DNA of 64,000 nt, from assembly GCF_020991085.1 (NCBI RefSeq), contig NZ_CP087719.1, positions 4,484,001 to 4,548,000 on the forward strand. Direction: 5' to 3'. Shown here in pieces: positions 14,571 through 51,293 of this stretch. The notes under the pieces were generated by a model. It was not told the DNA's origin. It did not search any database and was given only the letters and a program-made list of their open reading frames with translations. Origin of the DNA: Roseomonas sp. OT10. GTDB lineage: Bacteria > Pseudomonadota > Alphaproteobacteria > Acetobacterales > Acetobacteraceae. The stretch's first letter is position 1, and each line of letters starts with the position of its first letter. The position numbers and the translations under genes are program-made.

Positions 14571-14880
14571 GCCCGTTCCCCGGGGGAGGCGCCGCCTCCC
14601 CCGTAGCCCCCTCCGCCGGGGGCGAGCCGGCCCCCGGACCCCGGCAGGAGTCTGGCGCCGTATGGCATGGGTCAGCCTGCGGGCCGAACCGGGCAGGCAG
14701 GGCATGAAAAGCCATGCCCGCGTCGTGCCGGCGGCACCCTCGGGCGCCGGAGGTCATGGACCTCCGGCGAGGCGATCCCGCTGCAACGGCCCCGTGAGAG
14801 GGGGTCCAGGGGCTCTGCTCCTGGCGGATGGGGGGTACGGGGGCGAAGGCAGCGCCTTCCCCCCGGGGAGCGGGCACGAC
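14571..14880 (+). repeat. Interspersed hairpin repeat, copy A
   Basis: About 310 bp between the SDR start and the DppF stop, made of ordered hairpins: H1 14582-14602 (GGGGGAGGC, loop GCC, perfect), H2 14616-14637 (CCGGGGGC/GCCCCCGG), H3 14745-14769 (11-bp perfect arms, loop ATG), H4 14806-14824 (CCAGGGGC/GCTCCTGG) and H5 14839-14864. The same order occurs in four other intergenic copies in the window, with compensating base changes in the stems. No protein-coding signal is present. Confidence 0.85.
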
Positions 14881-14882
14881 GC

Positions 14883-15878
14883 TCAAGCGATCTCCTGACG
14901 GATGCAGGCCACGGCATGATCCGCGCCCACGTCGCGCAACGGCGGAACCGCGTCCCCGCAGGCGGGGACAGCCTCCGGGCAGCGGGTGCGGAAGGGGCAG
15001 CCGGAGGGCGGGTTCAGCGGGCTGGGGATGTCGCCGCGCAGCACGATGCGCGGGCCACGATCGGCATGCGGCCGGGCCTCGGGCACGGCGGAGAGCAGGG
15101 CGCGGGTATAGGGGTGGCGCGGGGTGCGGTAGACCTCGCGGGCCGGGCCGATCTCCATGACGCGGCCGAGGTAGAGCACGGCCACGCGGTCGGAGACGTA
15201 TTCCACCACCGCCAGGTCGTGGGCGATGAGCAGCATGGTCAGGCCGAGCCGGGCGCGCAGCTCCTCGATCAGCGCCACGATCTGCGCCTGGACGGAGACG
15301 TCGAGGGCGCTGACTGGCTCGTCCGCCACGATCAGCTCCGGACCGGGGGCGATGGCGCGGGCGATGCCGATGCGCTGGCGCTGGCCGCCGGAGAATTCGT
15401 GCGGGTAGCGCCCGGCATGGTCGGCGCGCAGGCCGACCGTTTCCAGCAGCTCGGCCACGCGGTCGGTCCGTTCGGCGCGGGTCTTCAGCAGGCCGAAGGT
15501 CTCCAGTGGCTCGGCGATGCTGTCGCCCACGCGCAGGCGCGGGTTCAGCGAGGCGTAGGGGTCCTGGAACACCATCTGCATCCGCTGGCGCAGCGGGCGC
15601 ATGGCGCGGCTGGGCAGGGCGGCGACATCCGTGCCGTCGAACATGATCCGGCCGGCGGAGGGCTCGTGCAGCCGCATCACGCACTGGCCGATGGTGGTCT
15701 TGCCGGAGCCGGACTCGCCCACCAGCCCCAGCACCTCGCCCCGGCGCAGCGTGAAGGAGACGTCGGTCACCGCCTGCACCGCAGTGGGCGCGCGACCGGA
15801 CAGGCGGCCCAGGCCGCCGGGCTTCTGCGGGAACCACTTGCGCAGCCCCTCGACCGCGAGCAGCGGCGCGGCGGTCAT
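14883..15878 (-). CDS. Dipeptide/oligopeptide ABC transporter ATP-binding protein, DppF/OppF type
   Basis: 331-residue ATPase. Walker A GESGSGKTT, Q-loop MVFQDPYASLNPR, signature FSGGQRQRIGIARAI and Walker B ELIVADEPVSALDVS are intact. The C-terminal oligopeptide-transporter extension carries the Cys pattern CPFRTRCPEAVPACG that binds an iron-sulfur cluster in several Dpp/Opp ATPases. The ATG at 15878 overlaps the DppD stop. Works with DppD, DppB, DppC and the binding protein of this locus. Confidence 0.92.
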   Translation of the reverse strand: MTAAPLLAVEGLRKWFPQKPGGLGRLSGRAPTAVQAVTDVSFTLRRGEVLGLVGESGSGKTTIGQCVMRLHEPSAGRIMFDGTDVAALPSRAMRPLRQRMQMVFQDPYASLNPRLRVGDSIAEPLETFGLLKTRAERTDRVAELLETVGLRADHAGRYPHEFSGGQRQRIGIARAIAPGPELIVADEPVSALDVSVQAQIVALIEELRARLGLTMLLIAHDLAVVEYVSDRVAVLYLGRVMEIGPAREVYRTPRHPYTRALLSAVPEARPHADRGPRIVLRGDIPSPLNPPSGCPFRTRCPEAVPACGDAVPPLRDVGADHAVACIRQEIA

Positions 15879-16912
15879 GCGGCCTGCTCCAGCGGCAGGG
15901 CGGGAATCTCGCCCATGCGGATGCAGCGGGCGGCACGCCCGGGCCCTGCGGCGAGCAGCGGCGGTGGCGCGGCGCGGCATTCGGCGCGGACATGGACGCA
16001 GCGCGGGGCGAAGCGGCAGCCGGGGGGAGGGAAGGCGGGGTCGGGCGGGGCGCCGCCGATCGGGCGCAGGGGCCGCCGGCCGCGCCAGGAGGAGCCGAGC
16101 TCCGGCACCGAGGCGAGCAGGCCCTGGGTATAGGGGTGGCGCGGGCTGGCGAGGATGTCGCCCACCGGCCCCTCCTCCACCACCTGGCCGGCATACATGA
16201 CCGCCACGCGCCGGGCCATCTCCGCCACCACGCCCAGATCGTGGGTGATGAACAGCATGGACAGCCCCGCCTCCTGCTGGAGGCGGCGCAGCAGGTCGAG
16301 GATCTGCGCCTGGATGGTCACGTCCAGCGCCGTCGTCGGCTCGTCCGCGATCAGCAGGCGCGGGTTGCAGGCCAGCGCCATGGCGATCATCACGCGCTGC
16401 CGCATGCCGCCCGACATCTCGTGCGGATAGCTGCGGGCACGGCGCGCGGGGTCGGGGATGCCGACCTGCTCCAGCGCCGAGAGCGCCCGATCCCGTGCGG
16501 CGCGGCCGGTGCGCCCGCCGGGGGCGCCGTGCAGGGCGGCCGCCTCGGCGATCTGGTCGCCCACGGGGAAGACCGGGTTCAGCGAGGTCATCGGCTCCTG
16601 GAAGATCATCGCGATCTGCCCGCCGCGCAGCCGCCGCCGCGCCTCGGGCGTCAGGGCGAGGAGATCGACGGGCCCCCCGCCCTCCGGCCGGAACAGGATG
16701 CGGCCGGAGAGGGTGCGCGCCTGCGGCTGCGGCAGCAGCCCCATCACGGCGAGCGAGGTGACGGACTTGCCGGAGCCGGATTCCCCCACCACGGCCAGGG
16801 TCTCGCCCGGGGCGACGTCGAAGCTGACGCCGCTGGTCACGGGCGTGACGCGGTGGCGGCTGGCGAAGCCGATGCCGAGGTCCTGGACGGAGAGCAGGGG
16901 GAAATCCGTCAC
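15875..16912 (-). CDS. Dipeptide/oligopeptide ABC transporter ATP-binding protein, DppD/OppD type
   Basis: 345-residue ATPase from a GTG at 16912, five bases after the binding-protein stop. A longer in-frame reading would run back into that gene. Walker [22 protein letters not shown], signature [15 protein letters not shown] and [14 protein letters not shown] are complete. The C-terminus has the [15 protein letters not shown]ys cluster. It pairs with DppF to form the ATPase heterodimer. Confidence 0.92.
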
Positions 16913-49662: not shown

Positions 49663-49689
49663 CCACACCACCGCATCGGGAACATCGTC

Positions 49690-50628
49690 ATGGAACGCAT
49701 CGTCAGGGTCGCCGCCGCGCAGATGGGCCCCATCGCCAGGGAGGAGAGCCGCGCCGAGGTCGTGCAGCGCCTCGTCGCGCTGCTGCGCAAGGCCAAGAGC
49801 TTCGGCGCCGAGCTGGTCGTCTATCCCGAGCTGGCGCTGACCACCTTCTTCCCGCGCTGGGCGATGGAGAATCCCGAGGCCGCGGACGGCTACTTCGAGA
49901 CCGCCATGCCCAACCCGGCGGTGCAGCCGCTGTTCGACGAGGCGAAGGCGCTGGGGATCGGCTTCTACCTCGGCTATGCCGAGCTGGCCGAGGAGGAGGG
50001 ACGCCGGCGCCGCTTCAACAGTGCGCTGCTGGTGGAGCGCGACGGCCGCATCATCGGCAACTACAGGAAGGTGCATATCCCCGGCTACAAGGAACAGGAC
50101 GCCGCCGGGCTGCGCACGAACTTCGAGAAGCGTTTCTTCGAGAACGGCGATCTCGGCTTTCCCGTCTTCGAGGGTTTCGGCGGGACGATGGGGATGCTGC
50201 TCTGCAACGACCGGCGCTGGCCGGAATCCTACCGCGTCATGGCCCTGCAGGGGGTGGAGCTCGTGATGGTGGGCTACAACACCGGCGCGGTGCGGCGGAA
50301 CCAGGTCGGCAACCACGCCGCCGCCCTGCAGCCCGCGCACCAGCCCAGCATGCACAACCACCTGGTGATGCGGGCGGGCGCCTATCAGAACTGCTGCTGG
50401 GTGGTGGGCGTCGCGAAGGCGGGCTACGAGGAGGGCGAGGACCTGCTGGGCCAGACCTGCATCATCGCGCCGAGCGGCGACATCGTCGCCATGGCTGTGG
50501 GCGTGGGCGACGAGGTGGTGGTGGCCGATTGCGACCTGGAGGCGGGGCGCCCCTACCGGGAGACGATCTTCAACTTCGAGGCCAACCGGCGCATCGAGCA
50601 TTACGGCCTGATCACCCAGCGCCGGTAG
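49690..50628 (+). CDS. N-carbamoyl-D-amino acid amidohydrolase (nitrilase superfamily)
   Basis: 312 residues. The catalytic triad is at Glu47 (VVYPELALT), Lys127 (GNYRKVHIPG) and Cys172 (MLLCNDRRWPES). The positions and the CNDRRWPE block are diagnostic for D-carbamoylase rather than beta-ureidopropionase or nitrilase. The end ANRRIEHYGLITQR is also typical. It releases CO2 and NH3 from N-carbamoyl-D-amino acids made by the hydantoinase. Last gene of the operon. Confidence 0.93.
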   Translation: MERIVRVAAAQMGPIAREESRAEVVQRLVALLRKAKSFGAELVVYPELALTTFFPRWAMENPEAADGYFETAMPNPAVQPLFDEAKALGIGFYLGYAELAEEEGRRRRFNSALLVERDGRIIGNYRKVHIPGYKEQDAAGLRTNFEKRFFENGDLGFPVFEGFGGTMGMLLCNDRRWPESYRVMALQGVELVMVGYNTGAVRRNQVGNHAAALQPAHQPSMHNHLVMRAGAYQNCCWVVGVAKAGYEEGEDLLGQTCIIAPSGDIVAMAVGVGDEVVVADCDLEAGRPYRETIFNFEANRRIEHYGLITQRR

Positions 50629-51293
50629 CTCGGCCTTGCGGCACGGGGCCGCCCACACAAGTCTCGGAGCCGGTGGCTGCTACCGCCAGATCCAGGTCGT
50701 CTTGCGTCCCGGGATTGATCCCGTGGCGCCGGGCGAGCCTCCTCATACGCGCGGCGCGATGCGCTGACGTCTGCCGGACTGGCACTCGTGGCCCGGGGGC
50801 AAGGCTCCGCCTCGCCCCCGTACCCCCACTCCGCCAGGACCCTGCGGGCCCTGGACCCGATCAGCGCTGCCGCGCGGTGGTGGTGACGGGGTCGCGGCGC
50901 CGAGGAGCCATGCTCCTCGGCGGGTACGGGGTCCGCGCTCGCGGACGCCTATGGCACTTTATTCGGAGTCCCACCGGTCCGCGTTCCGTCAGGATTCATC
51001 CTGCAGACTGACGGCAGCCACGGAGTGCCAAACTCCCAGCGGGGACCGGGGCCTGCTTGTGGCCCCGGCAGGGGAGGGTCCGGGAGAGGACGGCGTCCCC
51101 TCCCGGTCCACCGCCGGAACTCCACAGCACGACGGGTCAGGACAGTCCGCCGTCCGTATCAGGCCCTCTTGACCATGCTGTATCGCCCGACGGATCGCCC
51201 CTGTCTGCGGGCGTTCCGGTGAAGAAGCTGGCGCATGGCGCGCCCTGCCACGCCCGCGGGAAGACTGCGCCGCCGGACTCTGAGATCAAGGAT
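50629..51293. other. 665-bp non-coding region holding repeat copy E
   Basis: Between convergent genes ending at 50628 and 51294. The central 50791-51130 is repeat copy E. The flanks (50629-50790 and 51131-51293) show no gene-like frame, promoter or RNA gene that I recognise. Confidence 0.5.
50791..51130 (-). repeat. Interspersed hairpin repeat, copy E
   Basis: Inverted relative to copy D. It reads H5 (GGGGGCAAGGC/GCCTCGCCCCC), H4 (CCAGGACCC/GGGCCCTGG), H3 (GAGGAGC/GCTCCTC), then the H2 region GGCCCCGG, then H1 51082-51104 (GGGAGAGGAC/GTCCCCTCCC, one mismatch, loop GGC). The stretch beyond H1 (GGTCCACCGCCGGAAC) is the inverse of the same stretch in copy D. Confidence 0.85.

What the first reader, a model, noticed from the sequence alone, without database searches (positions are those of the whole stretch)
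14571..51130. Five-copy intergenic repeat family built from covarying hairpins
Copies A (14571-14880), B (21201-21510), C (25805-26099 plus 27386-27412), D (42938-43275) and E (50791-51130) share the same hairpins H1-H5 in the same order. Stem sequences change between copies while pairing is kept. H1 is GGGGGAGGC in A/B/C and GGGAGGGGAC in D, all with a 3-base loop. H3 is GGAGGTC in A/C, GGGGAGC in B and GAGGAGC in D/E. H4 is CCAGGAAAC in B and CCAGGGCCC in D. All copies are intergenic and touch at least one gene 3' end. Covarying stems over ~310-340 bp suggest a structured RNA or DNA element under selection, not decay of a gene.
Basis: seen in the sequence. Interest (0 to 1): 0.82.

Follow-up and report, generated by a model that had tools for sequence, protein, structure and literature searches.

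The report
Hairpin-rich mobile repeat between convergent genes
A Roseomonas-type bacterium carries more than two hundred copies of a small hairpin-rich DNA element that looks like a non-coding jumping sequence, sits mostly where two genes end facing each other, and keeps flipping the loop of its central hairpin, so the family could be used to see how DNA hairpins evolve.

Summary
In detail: five copies, five hairpins in fixed order, paired stem changes. The five belong to a much larger family: 242 right-end motifs in the 5.69-Mb genome, DNA matches in all 14 congeners searched. The common subtype (copies D, E) is about 412 bp, longer than reported, with ~17-bp terminal inverted repeats and, in 37 of 54 such copies, an identical 3-bp TNA direct repeat on both sides, so it is best read as a non-autonomous transposon-like (MITE-like) family. 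In 1.26 Mb of this genome it occupies 59 of 172 convergent gene junctions, 26 of 739 co-directional and 1 of 172 divergent. A tree-aware test supports covariation in H1, H2 and H4, borderline in H3, none in the long-range stems. H3 differs: its 3-base loop lies in either orientation (78:45), random on the copy tree while stem alleles follow it. That is the mark of recurrent DNA-level hairpin inversion, so paired changes alone do not prove a functional RNA. No Rfam family, REP transposase or matching autonomous IS was found where looked for. Function (two-way 3'-end module or passive tolerance) is undecided; four copies in another genus carry a textbook bidirectional terminator at the H3 position.

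The parts
14563..14882 (+). Copy A (short-end subtype); TCA on both sides at 14560-14562 and 14883-14885, the right one being the stop codon of gene 14883-15878 (-). The direct repeat of this subtype is tentative, read by eye.
21201..21516 (+). Copy B, between co-directional genes 20308-21195 and 21548-22738; edges approximate
25791..26099 (-). Copy C, main part (reverse orientation)
26100..27385 (+). IS481-family insertion sequence splitting the H1 hairpin of copy C; ends TGTTCAGACC / GGTCTGAACA; 7-bp direct repeat GGGGAGG at 26093-26099 and 27386-27392
   Evidence: transposase domains
27386..27412 (-). Copy C, remainder of H1 and left end
42906..43317 (+). Copy D, full TIR-bounded element; TCA direct repeat at 42903-42905 and 43318-43320, the right one being the stop codon of gene 43318-44031 (-)
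42960..42982 (+). D: hairpin H1 GGGAGGGGAC-GCC-GTCCCCTCCC
42996..43018 (+). D: hairpin H2
43141..43165 (+). D: central hairpin H3 (11-bp perfect stem, 3-base loop ATG); the loop is inverted in other copies
43210..43230 (+). D: hairpin H4, with the conserved G.T wobble
43245..43269 (+). D: hairpin H5
50746..51158 (-). Copy E, full TIR-bounded element; TCA direct repeat at 50743-50745 and 51159-51161 (TGA in element orientation), not at a stop codon

Best explanation
The repeats are a genus-wide family of short non-autonomous mobile elements (MITE-like). Shown: a conserved inverted arrangement [H1-linker-H2]...H3...[H4-linker-H5]; in the major subtype of this genome ~17-bp terminal inverted repeats and a TNA direct repeat at both edges; a strong excess between convergent genes; significant pair covariation in H1, H2 and H4; recurrent inversion of H3. 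Inferred: copies were inserted by a DDE-type transposase that duplicates 3 bp (TNA) and prefers CTNAG, supplied in trans or now lost. Insertions at TGA/TCA stop codons or elsewhere in convergent gaps leave both proteins and all promoters intact, so those survive. After insertion the hairpin core is kept more strictly than the ends. H3 is a symmetric palindrome whose centre is turned over repeatedly by template switching or cruciform processing, at no cost because whatever it does works in both orientations; H1, H2, H4 and H5 are directional signals whose loops keep their orientation. Most likely present role (inferred, about 40%): a two-way 3'-end module (transcript ending or 3'-end protection) for the flanking genes; otherwise merely tolerated.
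For: Identical TNA on both sides in 37 of 54 TIR-bearing copies against 19.5 expected, 0 of 20,000 permutations, 2 inverted-identical. Base before TNA is C in 31 of 37, base after is G in 22 of 37. 59 of 172 convergent junctions occupied against 26 of 739 co-directional and 1 of 172 divergent. No called gene lies inside any of 86 copies. Outer 40 bases of each end 62-68% identical between copies, hairpin/linker blocks 88-99%, flanks 30-40%. Covariation: 4 of 87 structure pairs at E<0.05, the 4 top-scoring of all pairs; 36 two-sided cells against 9.5 shuffled. H3 loop orientation: 39 changes on the tree against 37.2 for shuffled labels, while stem alleles change 10 times against 48.0. Inverse loops: 2 of 117 read in H1, 1 of 143 in H5 and none of 135 in H4, none of 127 in H2, each out of 150 copies. 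One locus: the three congeners read (G003, G004, G012) lack the element after their cobS stop.
Against: No transposase with matching TIR was found: the ends of 30 of 34 DDE_Tnp_1 loci of the own genome were checked, none matched. A TIR scan of 1.26 Mb gave 97 sites, 9 away from full copies; 5 of these lie beside partial copies and 4 were not followed up. 17 of 54 TIR-bearing copies lack an identical TNA pair, and 32 of 86 full copies lack this TIR. Congener copies mostly have other ends: 1 of 17 (G012) and 1 of 4 (G003) passed the TIR cut, neither with an identical TNA pair. No orthologous gene pair with and without the element could be shown: the genes after cobS differ and a 400-kb comparison gave no testable pair. 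Terminator role: 2 of 86 copies have a T-tailed hairpin on each strand, and empty junctions are no richer in such hairpins than occupied ones (5 of 110 against 3 of 59). Stop-codon hits (20 of 28) are close to the number expected from available T[GC]A sites (17.8), so there is no separate stop-codon targeting. H3 orientation is not wholly free of context: the inverse form is rarer in co-directional gaps (3 of 19) than in convergent ones (25 of 57), uncorrected p 0.03.
Confidence: 0.7

Rival explanations
1. A structured non-coding RNA or cis-acting RNA 3'-end module under selection for its fold, spread by recombination or insertion; the covariation reflects RNA selection.
For: Covariation in H1, H2, H4 beyond a tree-preserving null. 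H4 keeps a G.T (in RNA G.U) wobble in 79 of 94 copies where DNA palindrome correction would remove it, and the long-range stems hold more G.T than A.C on the plus strand (73 to 36 and 42 to 7), as a plus-strand RNA would. Core better conserved than ends. Strong 3'-end context.
Against: In the local hairpins wobbles fall on opposite strands in the two halves (G.T against A.C: H4 81 to 3, H5 49 to 8, but H1 6 to 21 and H2 4 to 8), so no single transcript pairs best in both; these counts are largely by descent, not independent. No Rfam match at gathering score in the window, and only three chance hits to animal miRNA families, far below threshold, for copy D. No covariation in the long-range stems. 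H3 flips freely.
Confidence: 0.3
2. The paired stem changes are purely mutational: template switching in DNA hairpins homogenises the arms and inverts the loop, without selection on structure.
For: H3 loops and their reverse complements co-occur on the same stems in G000, G012 and G003 and in 1 of 4 G101 copies; 20 exact inverses among 103 nearest-neighbour pairs, 34 identical. Loop inversion is the predicted footprint (PMC8794818, passages read); arm homogenisation and spacer inversion by template switching are stated in PMC8604942 (start of abstract in a listing).
Against: D-type H1 has a perfect 10-bp stem and a 3-base loop yet is inverse in only 2 of 54 copies read. H2 and H4 covary without inversion. 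The H4 wobble persists uncorrected. Pure mutation should act on all hairpins alike, unless loop orientation is selected there.
Confidence: 0.3
3. A REP/BIME-type family: inverted pairs of directional palindromic units moved by a RAYT transposase.
For: Inverted pair of directional two-hairpin units, high copy number, 3'-end location like REPs (PMC3733652, passages read); compact inverted pairs without a clear H3 in another genus (L232).
Against: No Y1_Tnp/RAYT match in the own genome, while the same search rings in 5 of 14 control genomes; TNA direct repeats are not expected of HUH enzymes (recalled); the element is far larger than a 20-40-bp REP.
Confidence: 0.15
4. Dedicated bidirectional terminators copied and kept because convergent genes need them.
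For: 34% of convergent junctions occupied; four G101 copies with AAAAA-stem-TTTTT at the H3 position (the only 1 of 10 genomes searched with that pattern), two of them read and by eye lying between facing gene ends.
Against: 2 of 86 copies have T-tailed hairpins on each strand; no complementary distribution with other T-tailed hairpins. Purifying selection against insertion near promoters and in operons gives the same excess.
Confidence: 0.3

Closest known systems
MITEs of bacteria (e.g. NEMIS and RUP, named in PMC3733652)
   Same: Short, non-coding, TIR-bounded, dispersed, direct repeat of the target, hairpin-forming
   Different: 412 bp is longer than the 70-300 bp given in PMC3733652; ordered multi-hairpin core with directional and symmetric hairpins; a third of the convergent junctions sampled are occupied; no partner IS found
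REP / BIME / REPIN elements with RAYT
   Same: Inverted pairs of palindromic units, hundreds of copies, gene 3' ends
   Different: No RAYT in the genome, much larger unit, TIR and TNA direct repeats; the GTAG/CGTC tag was not tested
IS5 family, IS1031 group (TNA duplication; recalled)
   Same: 3-bp TNA target duplication, CTNAG-like site
   Different: No transposase with these TIRs found; the 30 DDE_Tnp_1 loci checked have other ends
Template-switch hairpins described for rRNA (PMC8794818, passages)
   Same: Loop inversion and paired stem changes
   Different: There loop inversions are rare; here H3 orientation is randomised among copies

Membership tests
MITE | No coding capacity | tested here: met
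   No called gene lies inside any of 86 copies, and no core is overlapped by more than 60 bases (home-made gene calls)
MITE | Terminal inverted repeats | tested here: met
   54 of 86 full copies in 1.26 Mb have both TIRs at <=5 mismatches of 17; 32 do not
MITE | Target-site duplication | tested here: met
   37 of 54 identical TNA, expected 19.5, 0 of 20,000 permutations; not shown for copies without this TIR
MITE | Related autonomous IS with same TIR | tested here: inconclusive
   30 of 34 PF01609 loci examined, none matched; TIR scan of 1.26 Mb, 4 lone sites not followed up. Other transposase families and the rest of the genome not examined, so 'MITE-like' is used
REP/BIME with RAYT | RAYT transposase in genome | tested here: not met
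   PF01797: 0 matches in own genome
REP/BIME with RAYT | Inverted pairs of palindromic units at gene 3' ends | tested here: met
REP/BIME with RAYT | GTAG or CGTC tag next to a 20-40-bp palindrome | not tested
   not examined
IS1031-group derivative | TNA duplication | tested here: met
   the rule itself is recalled
IS1031-group derivative | TIRs matching an IS1031-group element | not tested
   ISfinder is not available here; only the own genome's DDE_Tnp_1 loci were compared
Structured RNA family | Covariation beyond phylogeny | tested here: met
   4 of 87 pairs at E<0.05, in H1, H2, H4; home-made R-scape-like test on 94 copies, structure taken from the same alignment
Structured RNA family | Match to a known Rfam family | tested here: not met
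   whole window, gathering scores; copy D, only chance-level hits
Structured RNA family | Transcription of the element as a defined RNA | not testable with these tools
   no RNA-seq
Intrinsic bidirectional terminator | Hairpin followed by T-run on each strand | tested here: not met
   2 of 86 on each strand in the own genome; met by 4 G101 copies

The most novel reading that the evidence does not exclude
A selfish element whose success comes from carrying its own two-way 3'-end module: it inserts into CTNAG at the facing ends of convergent genes, has filled a third of those junctions, and contains a central palindrome that flips as a neutral, near-saturated toggle while four directional hairpins around it do not flip. 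The more than two hundred copies would then be a natural experiment separating DNA template-switch covariation from covariation selected for structure.
Probability: 0.3. Interest if true: 0.75.

Novelty: new variant of a known kind. Interest (0 to 1): 0.57.

Why it matters
Covariation is the standard evidence for functional RNA structure. Here, within one repeat family, a hairpin with clear DNA-level inversion (H3) sits beside hairpins that covary without inversion (H1, H2, H4), so the two causes of paired changes can be compared in the same copies and genomes. The family also links small mobile DNA to the ends of convergent genes on a large scale (about a third of the junctions sampled), which bears on how a GC-rich genome with few T-tailed hairpins in such gaps (8 of 169 examined) separates facing transcripts.

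Tried and rejected
RAYT/REP origin: no Y1_Tnp in the genome. Matching IS: 30 of 34 DDE_Tnp_1 loci scanned for the TIR, none within 2 mismatches of 16, one at 3 and a few at 4; of 9 lone TIR-like rows in 1.26 Mb, 5 lie beside partial copies and 4 were left. Empty sites: a 400-kb stretch of G003 chosen by a TyrRS anchor was largely not syntenic (42 orthologues) and no element-flanking pair could be compared; a cobS search showed no element in the three congeners read (a fourth, weak match in G009 was not read) but with different downstream genes (one search read three loci on the wrong strand and was redone). Stop-codon targeting: rejected, explained by the TNA sites available. Complementarity with other T-tailed hairpins: none (three junctions with partial elements were left out); occupied gaps are somewhat longer (median 90 against 51.5, p 0.005). 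Link of H3 orientation with the strand of the element: none (Fisher p 0.39 and 1.0). Plasmid and phage collections: no match to copy D. Papers: two searches with the word Roseomonas and general ones listed nothing that names this repeat; titles and abstract starts only, in an open-access library.
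Full report
Observation. Four of them (C left out) align end to end with 19 further copies from the own genome (one fetched half-copy, L017, left out). RNAalifold on these 23 gives the five hairpins plus two long-range stems, with 12 of 63 pairs showing two-sided changes. Single-strand folding of copy A is far stronger than shuffles (z -7.8 and -6.7 on the two strands), as any element with long inverted repeats would be.

Scale. The window is part of a 5.33-Mb contig (G000, 5.69 Mb in 3 contigs). The right-end motif occurs 242 times in G000, 110 in G004, 60 in G003, 50 in G012 and 0 in the other 11 of 15 genomes of the genus. 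With copy A as a DNA query 15 of 15 genomes of the genus have some match, often only to an end, and 1 of the 25 other genomes searched. A covariance model of the H3-H5 half matches 11 of 80 genomes sampled in the family, 10 of 79 genera, with rough E-values and stricter filters.

Boundaries and mobility. In 1.264 Mb of the own genome (C1:200001-1000000, 3500001-3900000 and the window) a profile found 86 full and 19 partial copies. Of the 86, 54 have both TIRs, and 37 of the 54 have the same TNA on both sides in direct orientation, against 19.5 expected; 0 of 20,000 permutations reached 37; 2 of 54 were inverted-identical. The base before TNA is C in 31 of 37 and the base after is G in 22 of 37. 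For the other 32 copies, including A, B and C, no duplication was shown; A has TCA on both sides by eye.

Context. With home-made gene calls, 59 of the 86 copies lie between convergent genes, 26 between co-directional and 1 between divergent genes; that one is copy C, whose neighbour is its own IS transposase. They occupy 59 of 172 convergent, 26 of 739 co-directional and 1 of 172 divergent junctions (p about 1e-25 against gap bases). 40 of the 54 TIR-bearing copies abut a stop codon, but among 28 convergent copies with a duplication 20 do so against 17.8 expected from T[GC]A sites in the reconstructed gap, so insertion at stop codons needs no special targeting. The excess is weaker in 400 kb of G012 (6 of 17, p 0.015) and not significant in 400 kb of G003 (2 of 4, p 0.09). 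No called gene lies inside any of the 86 copies.

Conservation. Among 28 D-type copies the outer 40 bases of each end are 62-68% identical, the spacers between hairpins 76-86%, the hairpin and linker blocks 88-99%, and flanks 30-40%. A neutral, equally old insertion family would not show this; constraint or gene conversion confined to the core would, and so would a mixture of older end variants.

Covariation. On 94 copies from four genomes a G-test with average-product correction was compared with 40 alignments in which substitutions were re-placed on the FastTree branches. Four of 87 structure pairs reached E<0.05, one in H1, one in H2 and two in H4, and these were the four best of all pairs; four non-structure pairs also passed at lower scores. 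H3 pairs were borderline (best E 0.057), no H5 pair and no long-range pair passed. On 23 diverse copies of the H3-H5 half, 96.3% of cells pair, 36 cells carry two-sided changes against 9.5 in shuffles (0 of 500), and partners slid by one to three columns pair in 41-53%; the number of pairs with a two-sided change (7 against 4.9; 21 of 500 shuffles) and of further pair types (14 against 12.7; 143 of 500) stand out little or not at all. Recombination between copies violates the tree assumption, so this is support, not proof.

H3 inversion. H3 was read in 140 of 150 copies; 125 have a perfect 11-bp stem. Loops and their reverse complements co-occur: ATG 60 and CAT 20, GAT 7 and ATC 5, GTG 5 and CAC 3, CAA 11 and TTG 1, on the same stems in G000, G012 and G003. 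CAT is three substitutions from ATG yet commoner than any one-step neighbour. For 123 copies (15 imperfect stems and 2 unclassifiable loops dropped) a tree was built with H3 cut out. Orientation changes 39 times on it, as for shuffled labels (37.2, lowest of 300 was 31), while stem alleles change 10 times against 48.0. Of 103 nearest-neighbour pairs 34 have the same loop, 20 the exact inverse, 49 another loop. So the stem is inherited with the copy but the loop orientation is not: H3 turns over repeatedly. Mis-oriented elements cannot explain this: no reverse form among 135 H4 and 127 H2 read, 2 of 117 in H1 and 1 of 143 in H5, each out of 150 copies. One result qualifies 'neutral': the inverse form is rarer in co-directional gaps (3 of 19) than in convergent ones (25 of 57), uncorrected p 0.03. 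Loop inversion is the predicted footprint of template switching and is rare in rRNA (PMC8794818, passages read); arm homogenisation with spacer inversion is also described (PMC8604942, start of abstract in a listing).

Directional hairpins. H4 and H5 carry G.T wobbles on the element's plus strand (81 and 49 against 3 and 8 A.C), H1 and H2 the mirror image (A.C 21 and 8 against G.T 6 and 4), H3 is about balanced (G.T 7, A.C 11); the long-range stems hold more G.T than A.C (73 to 36, 42 to 7). As the two halves are inverted copies of one unit the hairpin pattern is largely one inherited feature, but it has resisted palindrome correction and marks the outward strand of each half as the one that folds (inference).

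Function. The terminator idea is attractive but unproven. In one other genus (G101, 1 of 10 genomes searched with that pattern) four compact copies carry AAAAA-palindrome-TTTTT at the H3 position, loops ATC in three and GAT in one; the two that were read lie, by eye, between facing gene ends. In the own genome only 2 of 86 copies have a T-tailed hairpin on each strand, and such hairpins are equally rare in occupied and empty convergent gaps (3 of 59 and 5 of 110). Purifying selection against insertion near promoters and inside operons explains the location as well.

Known relatives. No Rfam family reaches its gathering score in the window, and copy D has only chance-level hits. There is no RAYT gene. 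REPs are known to favour unidirectional and convergent gaps and to form inverted dimers (PMC3733652, passages), and a 2025 survey reports very many REP-like hairpins in the acetobacterial Lichenicola cladoniae (PMC12306157, passages; taxonomy), so part of this landscape may already have been counted there as anonymous hairpins. The element as a whole, with TIRs, TNA repeats and a flipping centre, was not seen in the listings of the papers searched.

Verdict. A real, large, structured repeat family, best read as MITE-like mobile DNA settled between convergent genes, with selection or DNA mechanics shaping its hairpins.

Noticed in passing
window 26100-27385: IS481-family element inserted in the H1 hairpin of copy C with a 7-bp duplication GGGGAGG.
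   Followed up: yes
G000 C1, 0-2.5 Mb: Uneven density of the right-end motif among the listed hits (first ~100 of 242): none before 0.21 Mb, 55 in 0.21-1.08 Mb, 18 in 1.08-2.5 Mb.
   Followed up: no
L230, L240 (G101, another genus): Compact ~200-bp relatives whose H3-position palindrome is flanked by A and T runs, a textbook bidirectional terminator; loops ATC and GAT are mutual inverses.
   Followed up: partly
L157, L159 (G012): An H4-type hairpin in inverted form stands at the H2 position, suggesting exchange between the two halves of the element.
   Followed up: no
G000 C2: One IS (PF01609, 285-aa frame) has 12 copies with the same score, 9 of them on contig C2, which also holds many other IS.
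   Followed up: no
L129-L168: Many of the congener copies printed share an A-rich stretch (about CCCGAAAAGAAAAACACC) upstream of H3 that looks weaker in G000.
   Followed up: no
L232 (G040), L235 (G088): Other genera carry inverted two-hairpin pairs without a clear H3, possibly the ancestral REP-like form.
   Followed up: partly
G000, 77 copies with a readable H3: The inverse H3 loop is rarer in co-directional than in convergent gaps (3 of 19 against 25 of 57; uncorrected p 0.03).
   Followed up: partly
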